Assembly: GCA_949295035.1 (NCBI GenBank)
Contig: CASFJO010000087.1
Coordinates: 1 to 38,106, forward strand
Reading direction: 5' to 3'
From: an uncultured Gemmiger sp.
GTDB lineage: Bacteria > Bacillota > Clostridia > Oscillospirales > Ruminococcaceae
DNA: 38,106 bases
Part shown: positions 151 to 27,116 of the stretch, piece by piece
Layout of the letters: each line of letters opens with the position of its first letter
How positions within the stretch are numbered: position 1 is the first letter of the stretch
The notes under the pieces: generated by a model
Databases searched by the model: none
What the model saw: only the letters and a program-made list of their open reading frames with translations
What the model was told of the DNA's origin: nothing
Translations under genes and position numbers: made by a program

Positions 151-1740
151 GTGACTCCAGACCCTAACCAATTTGACAGATATACTTTTTATGACGAAGC
201 CGCTACCAGAGATGTTATTCGCACAAATGTAGACTTTCTCAACCGAATCGGTGCATTACCGTACGCCGATAGCAATACTCTATTTGGATGGATTGCTCAG
301 AAGAAAGTGTTGTTCAAACGAATGCTCGATCCTCAAGCACGCATCCGTTATCACTTAAGCCGGCGTATCTTTCCACAAGAACTTTTTTATGAGTTGTTGG
401 AGGTACTCGGAACCAATAAGAATGATGTCCCAGAAAACATTTTGTATAACTTGGGCCGCTTTAGTGAGCTTATTCTGGATTTCGAGTCGGTTCATCAATG
501 GGTAACGCCCTATGATATGAGGGACTTTGCGTACTATTTGGGGTATTGGGCAACACGAGAAGCAAATGATATTCGGCATCAAGATCTCGGCGCGCAAGAT
601 GCAGTTCAAATTTCCACAATACATCAGGCAAAAGGATTAGAGTGGCCAGTCGTTTTCATTCCAACCTTAACCAATCGGCGCTTTCCTTCGCAAAGAAGGA
701 ATCGTGGAACCGAACACCTAATGGAATCATATGAATGTACTGGCCGAGTTAGCGTTAGAAACAATTCTCCAGAAGCTCAGGAAAGATTCGATGAAGAGTT
801 GCGCCTTTGGTATGTTGCACTGACTAGAAGTAAAAAATATTTATTCATTAGCGGCATAGAATGCGCTCGTACGCATACTTCACAATTTGCTTCAAATATT
901 CAACACGATTATGTCTGCACCGATCCACAGATTGTGTTTCCCAGGCCGAATCGTATTGCTCCTTCTGTTCCGATAGATGCAACGATATTACCAACGAATT
1001 TTAGTGATTTGCGCTATTATTGGGATTGCCCAAAAGACTATTTGCTTCGTAGGCTTATGGGATTTAGTCCCGGCGTAAATGAAAGTTATGGCTATGGCCA
1101 GCAAATTCATAATTTGTTGGCGTTGTTGCATGAAACTTTGCCGAATTCAAATGTTGATGATGCATGGATAGAATCCCAGGTAGACGGGCATTTCAATTTA
1201 CGATATACTCGCGGCGAGCCACTAGAGGCAATGAAGGCTGCTGCTAAACGTATTCTTAAAAACTATCTCCATGATGACCCTGAACTTCAAAGCAAAGTCC
1301 TTCATGCAGAAAAGCCCTTCGAGTTTATTATTGGCGACGCAATGATAAGCGGAACAATCGATTTGCTAAACAAAGCCGATCCAACAGATGAAAATGAGGC
1401 TAAGGTGGAAATCGTTGATTTTAAAACAGGAAAATCTGGAGATGATTTAGCTGCCGCTGAACGTCGCAGTCACGTCCAGCAACAACTGCAAATGTATGCG
1501 ATTGCAACGCAAGACGCTCTCGGCCTTGAACCGTTAAAAGCAACTGCACATTTCTTGTATGCTAACCAACCTCACGTCAAAGAAGATGTAGAGCTTTCGG
1601 AAGAACAAATGGAAAATATGAAGCACCAAATTGCTGACACGGTAACCTCAATAAAGCAAGGTTGTTTTCCTTTATGCGCATCAAAGACTAGGTGTGCTTC
1701 TTGCGATTTTAAGGCTATTTGCAACGGATCGACTAGATAA
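151..1740 (+). pseudogene. C-terminal part of a UvrD-like helicase fused to PD-(D/E)XK nuclease (truncated)
   Basis: The 529-residue frame opens with GTG. It carries only the back half of a superfamily 1 DNA repair helicase: motif V (QISTIHQAKGLEW, residues 153-165) and motif VI (LWYVALTRSKKYLF, 219-232). An AddB/Cas4-like nuclease follows, with GTID (D404), VDFKTGK (D423, K425) and the Q motif QLQMYA (446-451). C293 with C515, C518 and C524 could bind a 4Fe-4S cluster. The Walker A half is absent. The same frame is open upstream from base 1 to a TAG at 124-126, so the gene was probably longer and is now broken or cut by the window edge. No convincing ribosome site precedes the GTG. GC is near 42%, far below neighbours, which suggests transfer. 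A functional nuclease-only remnant is possible but less likely. Confidence 0.75.
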
Positions 1741-1833
1741 GTTATATGCCCGCTGTCGTTTACTGAAAATAGGCAATGAAGTTACTTTCTCACGGCTACA
1801 AAACCACCGTCTATTTGCCTGTCAGCGCAAGCA

Positions 1834-2100
1834 GTGTGTAGCCTGCATCCCCTGACAGCCACGCCAACAGGGTATAGTGCCGAGTTTATCACCTTCTGTC
1901 TCCACCGCTTCCGCAAACTGGATGTGCGGCAGACGTCCCATTGTAAGATGCTGATCCACTCTTTTGTCAATCCCAGTTTTCCATACAACGACAAAATGGC
2001 GATCACTTTCATCTACGAGGGCGGGGCAAGCACTATCACTTTTAACGACTTGAAGGTGGTGCCGAATAAAGGAAAAACAGGCTTAGATTCAGCTTGCTAA
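1834..2100 (+). pseudogene. C-terminal remnant of a large serine recombinase
   Basis: The readable frame ends with features of the C-terminus of large serine recombinases of Clostridia. There is a helix reading FCLHRFRKLDVRQ, then LIHSFVNPSFPYNDKMAITF, then a strand ending in ITFNDL. In that family this part follows the zinc-ribbon and coiled-coil region and precedes a variable tail. The catalytic N-terminal domain, more than 400 residues, is missing, and the sequence before about 1860 does not continue the homology, so this is debris of an excised or deleted mobile element. A rho-independent terminator follows directly. Family recognition is by eye. Confidence 0.6.
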
Positions 2101-2110
2101 ACTGCACCAG

Positions 2111-2150
2111 AAAAGGTCGCTGTACTCATGTGCAGCGACCTTTTCTTTTT
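2111..2150. terminator. Bidirectional rho-independent terminator
   Basis: A 12-bp perfect stem (2111-2122 with 2133-2144; AAAAGGTCGCTG and its complement) closes a 10-base loop. T-rich sequence follows on the plus strand and the A-start of the stem serves the minus strand. It lies between the recombinase remnant and the convergent minus-strand operon, so it can end both. Confidence 0.85.
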
Positions 2151-2153
2151 GAT

Positions 2154-3173
2154 TCAGTTGCCAAGCAGTTTTTCTTTTGCCCTTATGTCTTCCAGAAAAC
2201 GAGGGAACTCTGTTTCCGCGCTATCCGCCAAGCTTCCGTCTTCTGAGAGCATGGGCGTATCCAGCACCGCTTTTACGGACATTGCGGCAGAGGCAGCCAT
2301 CGCAACAGTTTTCTTGCTGTCTTCCGTGTAAAGCGCATAGTCGGTCCCTTCTGTCTCGATGATCCGCTCCAGGTCAAAGACCAGGGGCAGGAAGAGCGCG
2401 TCCAGCCTTGCCAAAAGATTATAGAACATCCAAGTTCTTCTGCGGATCGCTACGCACTGCACAGCTCCATTTTCAAATTGTTGGCACAGTTCATCTGCCT
2501 GCGCAGCGTAGCGTTTCGCCTCTTCCAGGCCCTTTCCGACTTTCGCACTCACGATAACGCCCATGACCAGCAATGCTGGCCCCGCCACCAAACCGCCCAG
2601 AACCGCTGTCCCGCCAGCCATGCCAAGACCCCCGGTAGCAAGCGAACCACCTCCAAAAAAGGCGAGTGTAGCGTTTGTAGCAGCCGCACCGCTGAGAGAG
2701 CTGATTGCCGTGCCGGTGGAGGCCACGGCAAAAGTAGAGGCCGCGCTGTACGCCCCAAAAGCTGCCAACGCGCCGCCAGTCAGGCCGGCCAACGATCCAC
2801 CGGCCAGTGAAACGCCAAAATGCTCAAGCGTATCTTCTTTTTCAAAAGAGGCACTGTCGTCGTGCAATTTACTCAATTCTAACAGACCGGACGATTCTGC
2901 AAAATCGACATTTTTGATCTTTGCAAATGCATCCACAAAAGGAAGAAGGCTGGCTGACAAAACCTGCATCTTTTCTTTGCCCAAGGATCCCAAAGCCTCT
3001 CCGCATTGGTGCCGGAGTCCTTCCAGCCGCAGTGCCGCATGCATGATCCGCTCTTCTGTATTGCTATTGATCTTCTTTGCGGTGTTATGGTCTACACCCG
3101 CCTTTACCGCAGCTCCTGCTCCGGCGGCTCCTGTTGCTGCGGCAATTCCAATAAAGACAATCGGTAATGGCAT
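2154..3173 (-). CDS. Glycine-rich (glycine-zipper-like) membrane protein
   Basis: This is the last gene of the three-gene Nudix/TerB operon. It starts with MPLPIVFIGIAAATGAAGAG, a hydrophobic Gly/Ala-rich segment, followed by a charged helical stretch. A long small-residue region (roughly residues 125-210) has repeated GGSLAG/GGALAAFG/GGGSLATGG patterns and a hydrophobic GPALLVMGVIVSA segment. A second helical, probably coiled-coil, domain follows. Such patterns insert in membranes or form tightly packed helices. A GTG 12 bases upstream overlaps the TerB stop and is an alternative start; I chose the ATG because relatives begin MPLP and a GAGGAG lies upstream. Similar proteins are sometimes labelled chemotaxis proteins without basis. 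The function is unknown. Confidence 0.75.
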   Translation of the reverse strand: MPLPIVFIGIAAATGAAGAGAAVKAGVDHNTAKKINSNTEERIMHAALRLEGLRHQCGEALGSLGKEKMQVLSASLLPFVDAFAKIKNVDFAESSGLLELSKLHDDSASFEKEDTLEHFGVSLAGGSLAGLTGGALAAFGAYSAASTFAVASTGTAISSLSGAAATNATLAFFGGGSLATGGLGMAGGTAVLGGLVAGPALLVMGVIVSAKVGKGLEEAKRYAAQADELCQQFENGAVQCVAIRRRTWMFYNLLARLDALFLPLVFDLERIIETEGTDYALYTEDSKKTVAMAASAAMSVKAVLDTPMLSEDGSLADSAETEFPRFLEDIRAKEKLLGN

Positions 3174-3181
3174 CTCCTCGA

Positions 3182-3952
3182 TCACTCCTCTGTGCTTTCC
3201 GCTTCCGTATGTTCTCCGGCATTTGCATCTTTCGATCGGGAAAACAATTTGCGCGTCTGCTTATTGATGCTTCCGGCAATCGATTTTGTGGCCCCCGCAA
3301 ACTTTCCGCCGAGTTCTGTTCCCGTGGAGGCAAAGTTCGCGCTCCATTTTGCTATTTTGCTGTCTTTGGGCGGTGCAATCTTCTCAACCGATTCATACTC
3401 TTCATCTTGTATCAATTGCCTGATGCCCTCCATCGTAGCGGCGCGGCGATTCTGCAGTTCGTCCACGATCGGGCGAACCTGCGCATACGGACGGTTACTC
3501 TGTTCGATCCAGTTCATTTCTTTTTCGATGGCTGCGATCGTCTTCATGCTGTGCTCCATTTCGAAAAAGACGGAGTGCTCCATCCCGGTCACCCGCACAA
3601 TATGCTTGATGAGCTTTCTTTCCGCACCGGCGTATTCCGCATTGCTGAACGCAATCGTCAAAAGGTCCCATACCAGCAACCGCACCCCGATCCCGGCTTC
3701 GCCCTCCGCAGGCACCGCCAATTCCCGGTCAATGCCCTCCAGAAGCAATTCATAGGCGTCCTCTTCTTCTATTCCGCTATGAATCTGGCGGTCCACCTCT
3801 TCGACAATTTGCTCCCGATATTCGCAAAAGGCATCGGGATCCAATTCGGTACCGATCGCCTGAAAGCATTCCTGCTCGTCCGCTGTTGCGGCCCCATCCG
3901 CCGCCATCAGATAGCAAAAAATTTTCAGCGCAGCCCTCTTGTTCAACACCAT
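3182..3952 (-). CDS. TerB-like (tellurite-resistance B family) protein
   Basis: A 256-residue protein whose N-terminus (ALKIFCYLMAADGAATADEQECFQAIG) has the helix-acidic-loop-helix pattern of TerB/DjlA-type domains. In that family the conserved acidic residues bind metal at the inner membrane face. A second acidic helical repeat (LTIAFSNAEYAGAERKLIKHI, around 135-155) looks like the second half of the TerB fold. The C-terminal 70 residues are basic and polar (KQTRKLFSRSK) and probably flexible. It lies 19 bases after the Nudix fusion gene and overlaps or abuts the glycine-rich gene, so the three are co-transcribed. AAGGA precedes the ATG. TerB proteins often sit in stress or conflict systems with membrane partners; a scaffold role here is inference. 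Confidence 0.7.
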   Translation of the reverse strand: MVLNKRAALKIFCYLMAADGAATADEQECFQAIGTELDPDAFCEYREQIVEEVDRQIHSGIEEEDAYELLLEGIDRELAVPAEGEAGIGVRLLVWDLLTIAFSNAEYAGAERKLIKHIVRVTGMEHSVFFEMEHSMKTIAAIEKEMNWIEQSNRPYAQVRPIVDELQNRRAATMEGIRQLIQDEEYESVEKIAPPKDSKIAKWSANFASTGTELGGKFAGATKSIAGSINKQTRKLFSRSKDANAGEHTEAESTEE

Positions 3953-3970
3953 TTTACGCCCATCCTTTCC

Positions 3971-5980
3971 TTACAGCTTCAGCGGCTCCTCAGACAGCAT
4001 CACCGCATCAAATTGGTTCCGGGAAGATATGGCCTCATTCCGCCCCAGCTGCTTTTGTATCCGGGCACTTGCCGACAAAAACACGTCCGCATCATTTTCC
4101 GCGAAAGCATCTTCCAGTTGGTCAGAGTTCCCTGCAAAGATCTTCAACCGCGGGGTCATATACTGTTCCACGGCCATTTCCATTTCTGCTTCGTATTCGT
4201 GCAGGATCCTTACCCGAACAGCACATTCCTCCTCCACCCGGATCCTTTCCTCCCGGGCGGCGTTGAGTTCTTCCAGAGCTTTGGACATCTCGTCATACAC
4301 ACCGATCGCGGCGGAAACGAATCCAAGAGGGGTGCCCACTTTTTCGATCGTTCCCACCGTCACAGCAGCTTTTTTCAACACCGCAGCTTTCTCTTCGAGG
4401 ACAGGGTCTGCCGCTACCAACCGGTCTTTCTGCTGCTCTGCCAGTGCGGCAAAGCTGTTGTACAGCGTCCCTATGGCTCCTACCGCTTCGACGGATCCAA
4501 CCATGCCGACCCGTATCAACCCAAAATAGTTGATCTTCTGCAAAAAACACAGCGCGAATCCACTTGGATCTCCCTTGTGCGTAAAATAGGCTTCAAGACC
4601 CGCGCTTCCCATATCTACCGCCATAAATGTAGTCGATGCGACCATCCGCATGTGGCGCAGTACAGGGCTGCGCCCCGGAAGAATTCGCTGAAAGTCCAGA
4701 TCCTGCAATTGCTGTGGCGTCTGAACCGGGTGTTCGGACAATTCTTTTGCCAAACGCGACAGCGAATAGAAAGAACAGACGATCGCCTCGTTCAGAAGTA
4801 CCGGAAAATACTGTCTGCTTTTTACAGCTTCATTGGTAAGCCCCAGTTCCGTCCTCAAATCAAATCGGATCGGCGCACGGATGATCCCGCCTTCTTTACT
4901 TTTTTCCATGAAAAGCGTTCCGTTGAACAATTTGGAGCAAAGAAGCGAAAGGTTGTACCGTCCCTCCTTGTTTTTTCCAGCTAGCGCCCGTATTCCAGGG
5001 GCGGAAGAGAGTTCTTTCAGCAGAGAGAGGAGCGGGCCCGGCAGTCCCGTGCCTTCTTTATTCATCGCAATGCTTCCGCTGGAACCCGCCACATCGCTTA
5101 CCATGTGAAAGAACCAGACAATGGTGCCGTTGTACAACCCGGAAAGCAAGTCAGGTTTTTCCCATCCTTGGATCGGGTGCTGAACGAAAGCGCCGTTAAC
5201 GTCTGTTCCATATCCAATTCCGGTAAACTGAGAGAGGATAGAAAACAATAGTCCGACAGGGGTTGGATGATGGGAGAAATCGCGCAAATGATGATATTTG
5301 CCGCCGCCAAATTCGTTGGTCAGCTTGTCAGCCTGGATTGGAAAGTCTTTTTCAAGAAAGCAAACGGCGTATGCAAGGTCGGTCCCTTTATATCCACGCC
5401 AATGGGCGACCTTTAAGACAAAAGCTTCTGTTTGCTTGCTTCCCCAATCGTGTGCGTTCTCCAGCGAAATGTCCTTCGTCCACAGCACGTCCAAGGCGGC
5501 GGTCATCAAACCGCTGGCGATAGCAACCGTGCAATCCCACTTTCCCAGGCGATCCGCTTCGGGTGCGCCGTTGTTGTCTTGAAACTCTAATAACGCTTTA
5601 CCGTTCGTTTTCAATCGTTCCAGAATCGTCTCATCCGCCGGGCAGAACGCATACCGGTCGATCTCGCCCACGGTGATCCAGCGGATGTCGTTGTGCTCCA
5701 GTTTTTGGGGCACGCCTTCCCGGATGGTAGCGTGAAACAGGGTCAGGTGCACCGTCAGATCCGGGTATTCATGGGTCACCTCCATGAACACGTCGCCCAC
5801 GTCCAGTGTGATGGCCAGTTCCTCCTGGCACTCCCGGATGAGAGCCTGCTGCTTGGTCTCGCCCGGCTCCACCTTGCCGCCCACAAACTCCCACAGAAGG
5901 CCCCGGGCCTTGTGGGCCGGGCGCTGGCAGATCATGAACTTATCCTTGTCCCAGATCAGGGCTGCTACTACTTCGGTCAT
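3971..5980 (-). CDS. Nudix hydrolase fused to a large uncharacterised domain
   Basis: Residues 1-130 form a MutT-like Nudix hydrolase with a near-canonical Nudix box: G35, E41, then REC-QEE-LAI at 49-57, with Ala in place of the last Gly. This family hydrolyses nucleoside diphosphate-linked compounds such as oxidised dNTPs. The remaining 540 residues match a family I remember as a separate protein of unknown function in gut Firmicutes. Its marks are HHLRDFSHHPTPVGLLFSIL, WFFHMVSD-AGSSGSIA and GTGLPGPLLSLLKELS, followed by hydrophobic helices and a coiled-coil tail. The ATG at 5980 is preferred over 5989 because AGAGGGGG is then correctly spaced and Nudix relatives start MTEVVAAL. The Nudix part is GC-richer than the rest, so the fusion probably arose where the acquired module joined a resident Nudix gene. 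Confidence 0.8.
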   Translation of the reverse strand: MTEVVAALIWDKDKFMICQRPAHKARGLLWEFVGGKVEPGETKQQALIRECQEELAITLDVGDVFMEVTHEYPDLTVHLTLFHATIREGVPQKLEHNDIRWITVGEIDRYAFCPADETILERLKTNGKALLEFQDNNGAPEADRLGKWDCTVAIASGLMTAALDVLWTKDISLENAHDWGSKQTEAFVLKVAHWRGYKGTDLAYAVCFLEKDFPIQADKLTNEFGGGKYHHLRDFSHHPTPVGLLFSILSQFTGIGYGTDVNGAFVQHPIQGWEKPDLLSGLYNGTIVWFFHMVSDVAGSSGSIAMNKEGTGLPGPLLSLLKELSSAPGIRALAGKNKEGRYNLSLLCSKLFNGTLFMEKSKEGGIIRAPIRFDLRTELGLTNEAVKSRQYFPVLLNEAIVCSFYSLSRLAKELSEHPVQTPQQLQDLDFQRILPGRSPVLRHMRMVASTTFMAVDMGSAGLEAYFTHKGDPSGFALCFLQKINYFGLIRVGMVGSVEAVGAIGTLYNSFAALAEQQKDRLVAADPVLEEKAAVLKKAAVTVGTIEKVGTPLGFVSAAIGVYDEMSKALEELNAAREERIRVEEECAVRVRILHEYEAEMEMAVEQYMTPRLKIFAGNSDQLEDAFAENDADVFLSASARIQKQLGRNEAISSRNQFDAVMLSEEPLKL

Positions 5981-6009
5981 CTGTGCCATCCCCCCTCTTG
6001 TTACCTTCC

Positions 6010-6038
6010 ATTATAGGAGCGCCGACGTCTTTCGGCAA
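6010..6038 (-). promoter_or_regulatory. Sigma-A-like promoter of the Nudix/TerB operon
   Basis: On the minus strand TTGCCG (6033-6038) and a perfect TATAAT (6010-6015) are 17 bp apart, about 30 bases before the chosen start. Confidence 0.75.
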
Positions 6039-27061: not shown

Positions 27062-27116
27062 TGTCTGGGTTCTCCGACCCGGAAGGCCGCTGGTTCGAAT
27101 CCAGTCGGGCGCACCA
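27062..27116 (+). pseudogene. 3' remnant of tRNA-Arg (UCU-like)
   Basis: GCTGGTTCGAATCCAGT is a T arm and CGGGCGCACCA an acceptor 3' strand with CCA, as in tRNA-Arg. An anticodon-arm-like CTGGG-TTCTCCGA-CCCGG precedes it, with an 8-base loop. No GCGCCCG 5' acceptor strand exists upstream, so the 5' half is missing. Such 3' halves are typical of att sites left by integration in tRNA genes. Confidence 0.7.

What the first reader, a model, noticed from the sequence alone, without database searches (positions are those of the whole stretch)
2154..6038. Three-gene operon: Nudix fusion, TerB-like protein, glycine-rich membrane protein
One promoter and one terminator bracket a nucleotide-hydrolase fused to a large uncharacterised domain, a TerB-like helical protein and a protein with membrane-inserting Gly-rich segments. 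Catalytic head, TerB scaffold and membrane partner in one compact unit is the build of a stress or phage-defence module. The GC step within the fusion suggests an acquired module that joined a resident Nudix gene. I do not know a described system with this content.
Basis: partly seen in the sequence, partly recalled or inferred. Interest (0 to 1): 0.75.

Follow-up and report, generated by a model that had tools for sequence, protein, structure and literature searches.

The report
Bunzi-like defence operon with Nudix head
Three neighbouring genes in a gut bacterium form a recurring unit related to a known but unexplained anti-virus system (Bunzi); here an ordinary Nudix enzyme gene has been joined to its front, and relatives suggest that the front part is swapped like a tool on a handle.

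Summary
The operon is real and its genes belong together. The "uncharacterised 540-residue domain" is a homologue of BnzB of the anti-phage system Bunzi (PADLOC 8e-29). The Gly-rich protein matches candidate defence family PDC-M09A (1.5e-25). The middle protein is TerB-like by way of its relatives. Of 80 homologous loci kept, 58 carry the Gly-rich protein, fused (51) or adjacent (7); all 6 with this C-terminal tail have TerB and Gly genes downstream in this order; neither family matches any of 841 genes further away. Restriction and McrBC genes neighbour some copies. Tail+TerB+Gly also occur with other BnzB lineages, an M48 peptidase fusion, and heads unlike BnzB. Best reading: a membrane-acting abortive-infection module, a Bunzi/PDC-M09 relative with exchangeable heads. 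No function was tested; BnzB chemistry and a pore-forming Gly protein are hypotheses.

The parts
3971..5989 (-). Nudix-BnzB-like fusion gene, 672 aa
   Evidence: ORF; PADLOC PDC-S07 (res 1-129) and BnzB (res 147-328, 8.4e-29); same fusion, 91% aa identity over 669 residues, in L036
5603..5989 (-). Nudix domain, residues 1-129 (separate gene in same-genus genomes)
   Evidence: Pfam NUDIX_4 1.8e-23; separate in G353 and G691
5813..5878 (-). Nudix box, residues 38-59
   Evidence: pattern match
4511..5542 (-). BnzB core, residues 150-493
   Evidence: profile match; AF2 model of residues 130-672 mean pLDDT 85.6
5270..5293 (-). invariant HH.....H motif, residues 233-240
   Evidence: invariant in 60-row alignment, numbering
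5084..5116 (-). invariant W..H..SD.AG motif, residues 292-302
   Evidence: invariant in 60-row alignment, numbering
3977..4336 (-). C-terminal tail shared with unrelated heads, residues 552-671
   Evidence: profile; found on L216, L217, L218, L222, L223
3182..3952 (-). TerB-like protein, 256 aa
   Evidence: profile family with L048 (Pfam TerB 8.9e-8) and L030 (2.1e-13)
2154..3173 (-). Gly-rich membrane protein (PDC-M09A-like), 339 aa from ATG 3173 (GTG 3185 also possible)
   Evidence: PADLOC PDC-M09A 1.5e-25; conserved start in A4
2544..2858 (-). Gly/Ala-rich hydrophobic head of the third protein (residues 110-214 counted from 3185)
   Evidence: composition; the 13 columns invariant in the 41-row alignment are residues 153-192
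6010..6038 (-). promoter-like site TTGCCG-17-TATAAT
   Evidence: scan; number of such sites not above shuffles
2109..2146 (.). terminator-like hairpin after the last gene
   Evidence: scan (listed for + strand); operon strand folds at -26 kcal/mol, z -4.87

Best explanation
An anti-phage module of the Bunzi/PDC-M09 kind. A BnzB-type head, here with a Nudix domain in front, is joined by its constant C-terminal tail to a TerB-like adaptor and a Gly-rich membrane protein. Proposed action (inferred): the complex sits at the inner membrane; the head senses or processes an infection product; the Gly-rich protein then inserts or oligomerises and damages the membrane, so that the infected cell dies before phage release. 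Shown here: homology to BnzB and PDC-M09A, conserved gene order, restriction/McrBC neighbours at some loci, low dN/dS of all parts, capture of a resident Nudix, and occurrence of tail+TerB+Gly with other heads. Inferred: docking by the tail, complex formation, anti-phage activity, trigger, membrane damage, and a nucleotide-handling role of the Nudix.
For: BnzB 8.4e-29 and PDC-M09A 1.5e-25. Canonical BnzA+BnzB pairs found for comparison (Vibrio and Lactococcus plasmids). Weak links of BnzA to the Gly family: PDC-M09A 0.0014 on Vibrio BnzA, BnzA 9e-5 on the L129 Gly protein. Gly partner at 58 of 80 loci, TerB+Gly at 6 of 6 tail-bearing loci, 0 of 841 genes further away. Neighbours HsdR/HsdM (L048), McrBC (L037), ResIII/PLD and DUF3427 helicase (L036). 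dN/dS window-L036: Nudix 0.085, core+tail 0.133, TerB 0.139, Gly 0.116. Top Foldseek hits of the Gly model are alpha-pore-forming AhlB, then SmhB and ClyA, with Tc-toxin subunits among them.
Against: No function tested. No Foldseek match of the Gly model at E <= 0.001 (best 0.03, TM 0.22; model pLDDT 68, under 50 over residues 109-197). Foldseek of the core found nothing at that level. 13 of 80 loci have, instead of the Gly protein, a downstream partner that looks coiled-coil by eye, so not every BnzB core needs the Gly protein. No BnzA hit for the window proteins (E up to 1, TerB-like protein, E up to 10). In Vibrio and Lactococcus BnzA no Pfam TerB was found, and the TerB set gave only 1.6% against BnzA in hhalign.
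Confidence: 0.6

Rival explanations
1. The head is the killing enzyme and TerB+Gly are only the membrane tether and trigger. BnzB would be a metal-dependent hydrolase (invariant HH.....H and W..H..SD), and the other heads alternative toxic enzymes.
For: Heads differ while tail, TerB and Gly stay; invariant His/Asp set in 60 sequences; some other heads (L222, L223, L216) look nuclease-like by eye only; some BnzB cores have no Gly partner.
Against: YdjM (PF04307) resemblance rests on motif order; profile comparison gives 0.3%. No Pfam nuclease hit in the six other heads scanned.
Confidence: 0.3
2. A general stress or membrane-maintenance module (Ter-type), not phage defence.
For: TerB is named for tellurite resistance; no phage test exists for this lineage that I saw.
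Against: BnzB homology, restriction/McrBC neighbours at some loci, patchy distribution (15 of 394 genomes of the order match, one of them only through the tail), relatives on plasmids and one phage record.
Confidence: 0.12
3. The Nudix fusion is an accident without a role in the system; the module works through BnzB, TerB and Gly alone. (Compatible with the best explanation.)
For: Among the loci examined fused only in the window and L036, at the same locus; of 4 genomes held for the genus only the window's has the fusion, G353 and G691 have it separate, G690 (75% complete) has no match; other tail-bearing loci lack it.
Against: Nudix box intact and lowest dN/dS (0.085, single estimate) between two fused copies; in L060 a Nudix of the same family lies 20 bp behind the BnzB-Gly gene; an M48 peptidase takes the same N-terminal place in three others.
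Confidence: 0.35

Closest known systems
Bunzi (BnzA+BnzB)
   Same: Head homologous to BnzB (res 147-328 against 159-353 of 504, 8.4e-29); TerB is listed for Bunzi in PMC10952713 (passage seen)
   Different: No BnzA hit; its place is taken by a TerB-like and a Gly-rich gene; Nudix in front; BnzB match covers only part of the profile; C-terminal tail shared with other heads
PDC-M09 (PADLOC candidate, M09A+M09B)
   Same: Gly-rich protein matches PDC-M09A (1.5e-25); C-terminal tail shared with heads L030 and L216, L222, which match M09B
   Different: Head is BnzB-like, without detectable similarity to the other heads (phmmer E up to 10); full M09B heads (L224, L225) lack the tail match and a TerB gene
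Separate NudG/MutT-like Nudix (PDC-S07)
   Same: Whole Nudix domain, PDC-S07 3.4e-44; separate gene in same-genus genomes
   Different: Fused to a BnzB-like head
Alpha-pore-forming proteins (AhlB, SmhB, ClyA)
   Same: Long helices around a hydrophobic Gly-rich head; among the top Foldseek hits
   Different: E 0.03 at best, TM 0.22; no sequence similarity shown
Dionysus and Shango (TerB defence systems)
   Same: Contain TerB (passages seen in PMC12926258, and PMC10952713)
   Different: Not compared by sequence here

Membership tests
Bunzi | BnzB protein | tested here: met
   8.4e-29 over residues 147-328 only; partial profile coverage
Bunzi | BnzA partner (PDLC03833) | tested here: not met
   no BnzA hit for the window proteins; Vibrio and Lactococcus BnzA score 3.8e-177 and 5.1e-128
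Bunzi | TerB domain | tested here: inconclusive
   TerB-like gene by its relatives; BnzA of Vibrio/Lactococcus gave no Pfam TerB hit
Bunzi | protects against phage | not testable with these tools
   none
PDC-M09 | M09A Gly-rich protein | tested here: met
   1.5e-25
PDC-M09 | M09B head | tested here: not met
   no M09B hit for the fusion; only the tail is shared with M09B-like heads
TerB (PF05099) | profile score above cut-off | tested here: inconclusive
   window protein 13.2 bits, cut-off 24.4; homologues L048 32.9, L030 51; others of the set below it (L033 21.9; L037, L038, L043, L047)
Nudix hydrolase | Nudix box GX5EX7REUXEEXGU | tested here: met
   residues 38-59, with Ala for the last Gly; box wording seen in the abstract of PMC11784022 (listing)
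YdjM (PF04307) metal hydrolases | profile similarity | tested here: not met
   hhalign probability 0.3%
Alpha-pore-forming proteins | same fold | tested here: inconclusive
   top Foldseek hits AhlB, then SmhB and ClyA, none at E <= 0.001

The most novel reading that the evidence does not exclude
Bunzi and PDC-M09 are two faces of one undescribed modular immune architecture: a constant membrane platform (C-terminal docking tail + TerB adaptor + Gly-rich pore-forming protein) on which heads are swapped between BnzB lineages, M09B-like and nuclease-like proteins, themselves topped with Nudix or M48 enzymes, like a tool changer for abortive infection.
Probability: 0.35. Interest if true: 0.8.

Novelty: new variant of a known kind. 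Interest (0 to 1): 0.6.

Why it matters
Bunzi is listed without a mechanism in a 2026 review (PMC12926258, passage seen). The comparison gives it a concrete, testable frame: a glycine-rich membrane protein at 58 of 80 relatives, TerB as an adaptor in one class, and interchangeable heads. It links two families that PADLOC keeps under separate names, would explain loci that carry only half of either, and offers a case in which an ordinary Nudix gene was captured by a defence-type module at a known spot.

Tried and rejected
BnzB core as a YdjM-type metal hydrolase: conserved His/Asp motifs fall in the same order, but hhalign gives 0.3% (29 YdjM rows) and 0.2% in a first try (with only 12 YdjM rows because I had read minus-strand loci on the wrong strand); not claimed. 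Linker of the single-chain BnzB-Gly proteins as a hidden TerB: hhalign 0.2%; not claimed. Solved-structure search with the core profile: 0 hits. Foldseek of the core against PDB and BFVD: nothing at E <= 0.001. First impression that L036 carries the fusion at another locus: rejected, since flanks of 87-88% identity show the same locus. A single origin of the tail class: not supported by the tree; that count is against the two other labelled groups only, and L033 sits on a long branch. The tree left out three rows of the 99 aligned: L102 (same contig as L024), L113 (cut by the contig end) and L084 (dropped without good reason). L082 had no called core and is counted so. Genes in all these maps come from a simple longest-ORF caller of my own, not from annotation.

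Literature: the listings (25 of 355 shown; 10 of 51 shown) showed no paper on BnzA/BnzB mechanism; PDC-M09 occurs in none of the 8 papers. Only passages of PMC10952713 and PMC12926258 were read. The original Bunzi paper (Millman 2022, recalled) was not seen.

Full report
WHAT IS THERE. Three genes on the minus strand lie head to tail between a promoter-like site at 6038-6010 and a hairpin at 2109-2146. Gene 1 (5989-3971, 672 aa) is a Nudix domain (residues 1-129; Pfam NUDIX_4 1.8e-23; Nudix box intact apart from Ala for the last Gly) joined to 543 residues without a Pfam family above cut-off. Gene 2 (3952-3182, 256 aa) is TerB-like. Gene 3 (likely start 3173; end 2154) is glycine-rich. Promoter-like sites are not above shuffles (2 against 2.9), nor terminator-like ones as a class (4 against 6.0); this hairpin folds far better than its shuffles (z -4.87).

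WHAT THE PROTEINS ARE. PADLOC profiles give PDC-S07 for the Nudix part (3.4e-44), BnzB of Bunzi for residues 147-328 (8.4e-29), and PDC-M09A for the Gly-rich protein (1.5e-25). The TerB-like protein scores 0.12 against Pfam TerB on its own; two relatives pass the cut-off (L048 8.9e-8; L030 2.1e-13), five others stay below it (L033; L037, L038, L043, L047), and L036 had no TerB hit. For comparison, complete Bunzi pairs on plasmids of Vibrio sp. SCSIO 43009 and Lactococcus score 3.8e-177/7.6e-178 and 5.1e-128/2.7e-150 for BnzA/BnzB. So the window has a BnzB-type head but no BnzA. Part of BnzA resembles the Gly family: BnzA scores 9e-5 on the Gly protein of L129 and 1.6e-6 on a 165-aa protein beside a BnzB-like gene on an Enterobacter plasmid. 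In L130 a TerB domain (Pfam 1.4e-5) and the Gly hairpin are in one protein, beside a short BnzB piece of 218 aa. The last two genes of the window thus stand where BnzA stands in Bunzi; homology of the window TerB to BnzA was not shown (hhalign 1.6%).

CO-OCCURRENCE. 15 of 394 genomes of the order match the 543 residues, one of them (G377, L030) only through the tail. A pattern scan of genome contigs found 225 relatives, of which the best 80 were kept. Of these 80: Gly fused to the core in one protein 51, Gly as a neighbour 7, a partner that looks coiled-coil 13, other or contig end 8, core not called 1. Six carry the C-terminal tail of the window's head, and all six have TerB then Gly downstream on the same strand. 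Further than two genes from the core, 0 of 841 genes match Gly, 0 TerB and 2 the Nudix. The set is biased towards the window, being its best 80 by tblastn. From the order sample, L033 and (with an unrelated head) L030 have the same order; L034 ends at the contig edge.

HEADS ARE SWAPPED. Of nine BnzB-type tail-bearing loci (window, L033, L034, L036, L037, L038, L043, L047, L048), two have Nudix in front (window, L036), three an M48 peptidase (Pfam for L033 and L047; HExxH in all three), and in four I recognised no extra domain. On a tree of 96 cores the tail class needs 4 changes against the two other labelled groups, starred branches force at least 2, and 0% of 200 bootstrap trees need only 1: the same tail+TerB+Gly set is paired with cores of different lineages. 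A search with the window-type Gly alignment matched 9 of 394 genomes of the order and 9 of 299 of the phylum, the window's own counted in both. Of 12 further stretches read: L216, L217, L218, L222 and L223 have the tail (E 9.9e-15 to 4.9e-34) and a TerB gene; L219 has a weak tail (0.0054) and no TerB; L224 and L225 have a full M09B head without tail match and without TerB; L215 and L220 have Gly with no such head called; L221 and L226 gave no called Gly gene. No similarity between the window's head and those of L030, L216, L217, L218, L219, L222, L224 or L225 was seen by phmmer (E up to 10; L223, a close relative of L222, was not in that run). L216, L222, L030 and weakly L219 match PDC-M09B; L218 does not.

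STRUCTURE. The core plus tail model (60 sequences) is confident (pLDDT 85.6, pTM 0.68) and almost all helical, with no match at E <= 0.001 in PDB or BFVD. Its invariant residues include H233, H234, H240, W292, H295, S298, D299, which look like a metal site; this is inference, and a profile link to YdjM failed. The Gly model (41 sequences, pLDDT 68) has long helices at 21-89 and 220-279 around a low-confidence Gly/Ala-rich head. The 13 columns invariant among the 41 sequences are residues 153-192, inside that head. Its best Foldseek hits are AhlB and SmhB pores, with ClyA lower and Tc-toxin subunits and coiled coils between, none at E <= 0.001: suggestive only.

HOW THE NUDIX GOT THERE. In G353 (same genus) a separate Nudix, 95% identical over 125 residues, ends in its own stop, and some 80 bases on lies a tRNA-Arg 3' fragment. 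G691 has two separate copies (91% and 89%); G690 (75% complete) has none; G730, another genus, has a 90% identical one. L036 (Candidatus Fournierella merdigallinarum) has the same fusion at the same locus: flanks are 87-88% identical, a ResIII/PLD plus DUF3427 helicase gene pair lies between the SLOG gene and the Nudix, and a complete tRNA-Arg(ccg) lies beyond the operon. G730 has a gene with a like start between its SLOG gene and Nudix. GC and GC3 step down at the junction. The low dN/dS of the Nudix between two fused copies (0.085) suggests that it has been kept working since capture, if the fusion predates their split.

DEFENCE CONTEXT. HsdR and HsdM beside L048, McrBC beside L037, helicase/PLD/DUF3427 beside L036 (Pfam); other genes scanned near L038, L043 and L047 in that call were not defence genes. 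Cas9-like and Cas1-like genes beside L086, L093, L105, an HsdR-like gene beside L024, and McrB/McrC-like genes beside L032 were recognised by eye only. No matched control for neighbour enrichment was run.

MECHANISM. I commit to a membrane-acting abortive-infection complex in which the head senses or processes an infection product and the Gly-rich protein carries out membrane damage, TerB acting as adaptor. Homology, order, low dN/dS and head exchange are shown; complex formation, trigger, membrane damage and phage protection are inferred. The main rival makes the head the effector.

NOVELTY. Bunzi is listed with mechanism 'Unknown' in PMC12926258 (passage seen). No listing or passage that I saw links Bunzi with PDC-M09 or describes this operon; the library lacks most subscription papers. 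It is a new variant of a known kind; the platform view would be larger if confirmed.

Noticed in passing
window 27072-27116: 45-base 3' end of a tRNA-Arg(ccg) without the rest of the tRNA (100% identical to part of the complete gene in L036); a like fragment lies behind the separate Nudix in G353 and G730: looks like attachment-site scars of an integration hotspot.
   Followed up: partly
window 151-2100: Low-GC (43%) contig end with a UvrD_C/PD-(D/E)XK gene that seems to lack its front (151-1740) and an 88-aa ORF that looks by eye like the C-terminus of a serine recombinase.
   Followed up: no
L138 2013-4762: IncHI2 plasmid of Enterobacter: trypsin-like protease, 165-aa Gly hairpin and BnzB-like gene in a row; 461 of 72,556 plasmid records hold at least 80% of this BnzB-like protein.
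   Followed up: partly
L231 3294-5847: Phage NatCom_3357 carries a BnzB homologue followed by a 369-aa gene; the second gene was not tested for the Gly family.
   Followed up: no
L216 7069-7383, L217 6870-7193, L218 9004-9705, L030 12649-12942, L035 10601-10861: A Cys-rich protein (CxxCxxCC-like pattern, by eye) recurs next to the Gly and TerB genes.
   Followed up: no
L033 7873-8094, L047 8812-9036, L048 8820-9041: A 73-74 aa HTH-like gene (by eye) overlaps the called start of the M48-BnzB fusion at all three such loci.
   Followed up: no
L039, L044, L054, L059 and others: A second BnzB class has directly downstream a 174-499 aa protein that looks coiled-coil (15 loci, two of them from the order sample) instead of the Gly protein.
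   Followed up: partly
window 2154-3952 against L036: dS of TerB and Gly (0.65, 0.62) is nearly twice that of the Nudix and BnzB parts (0.37, 0.36).
   Followed up: no
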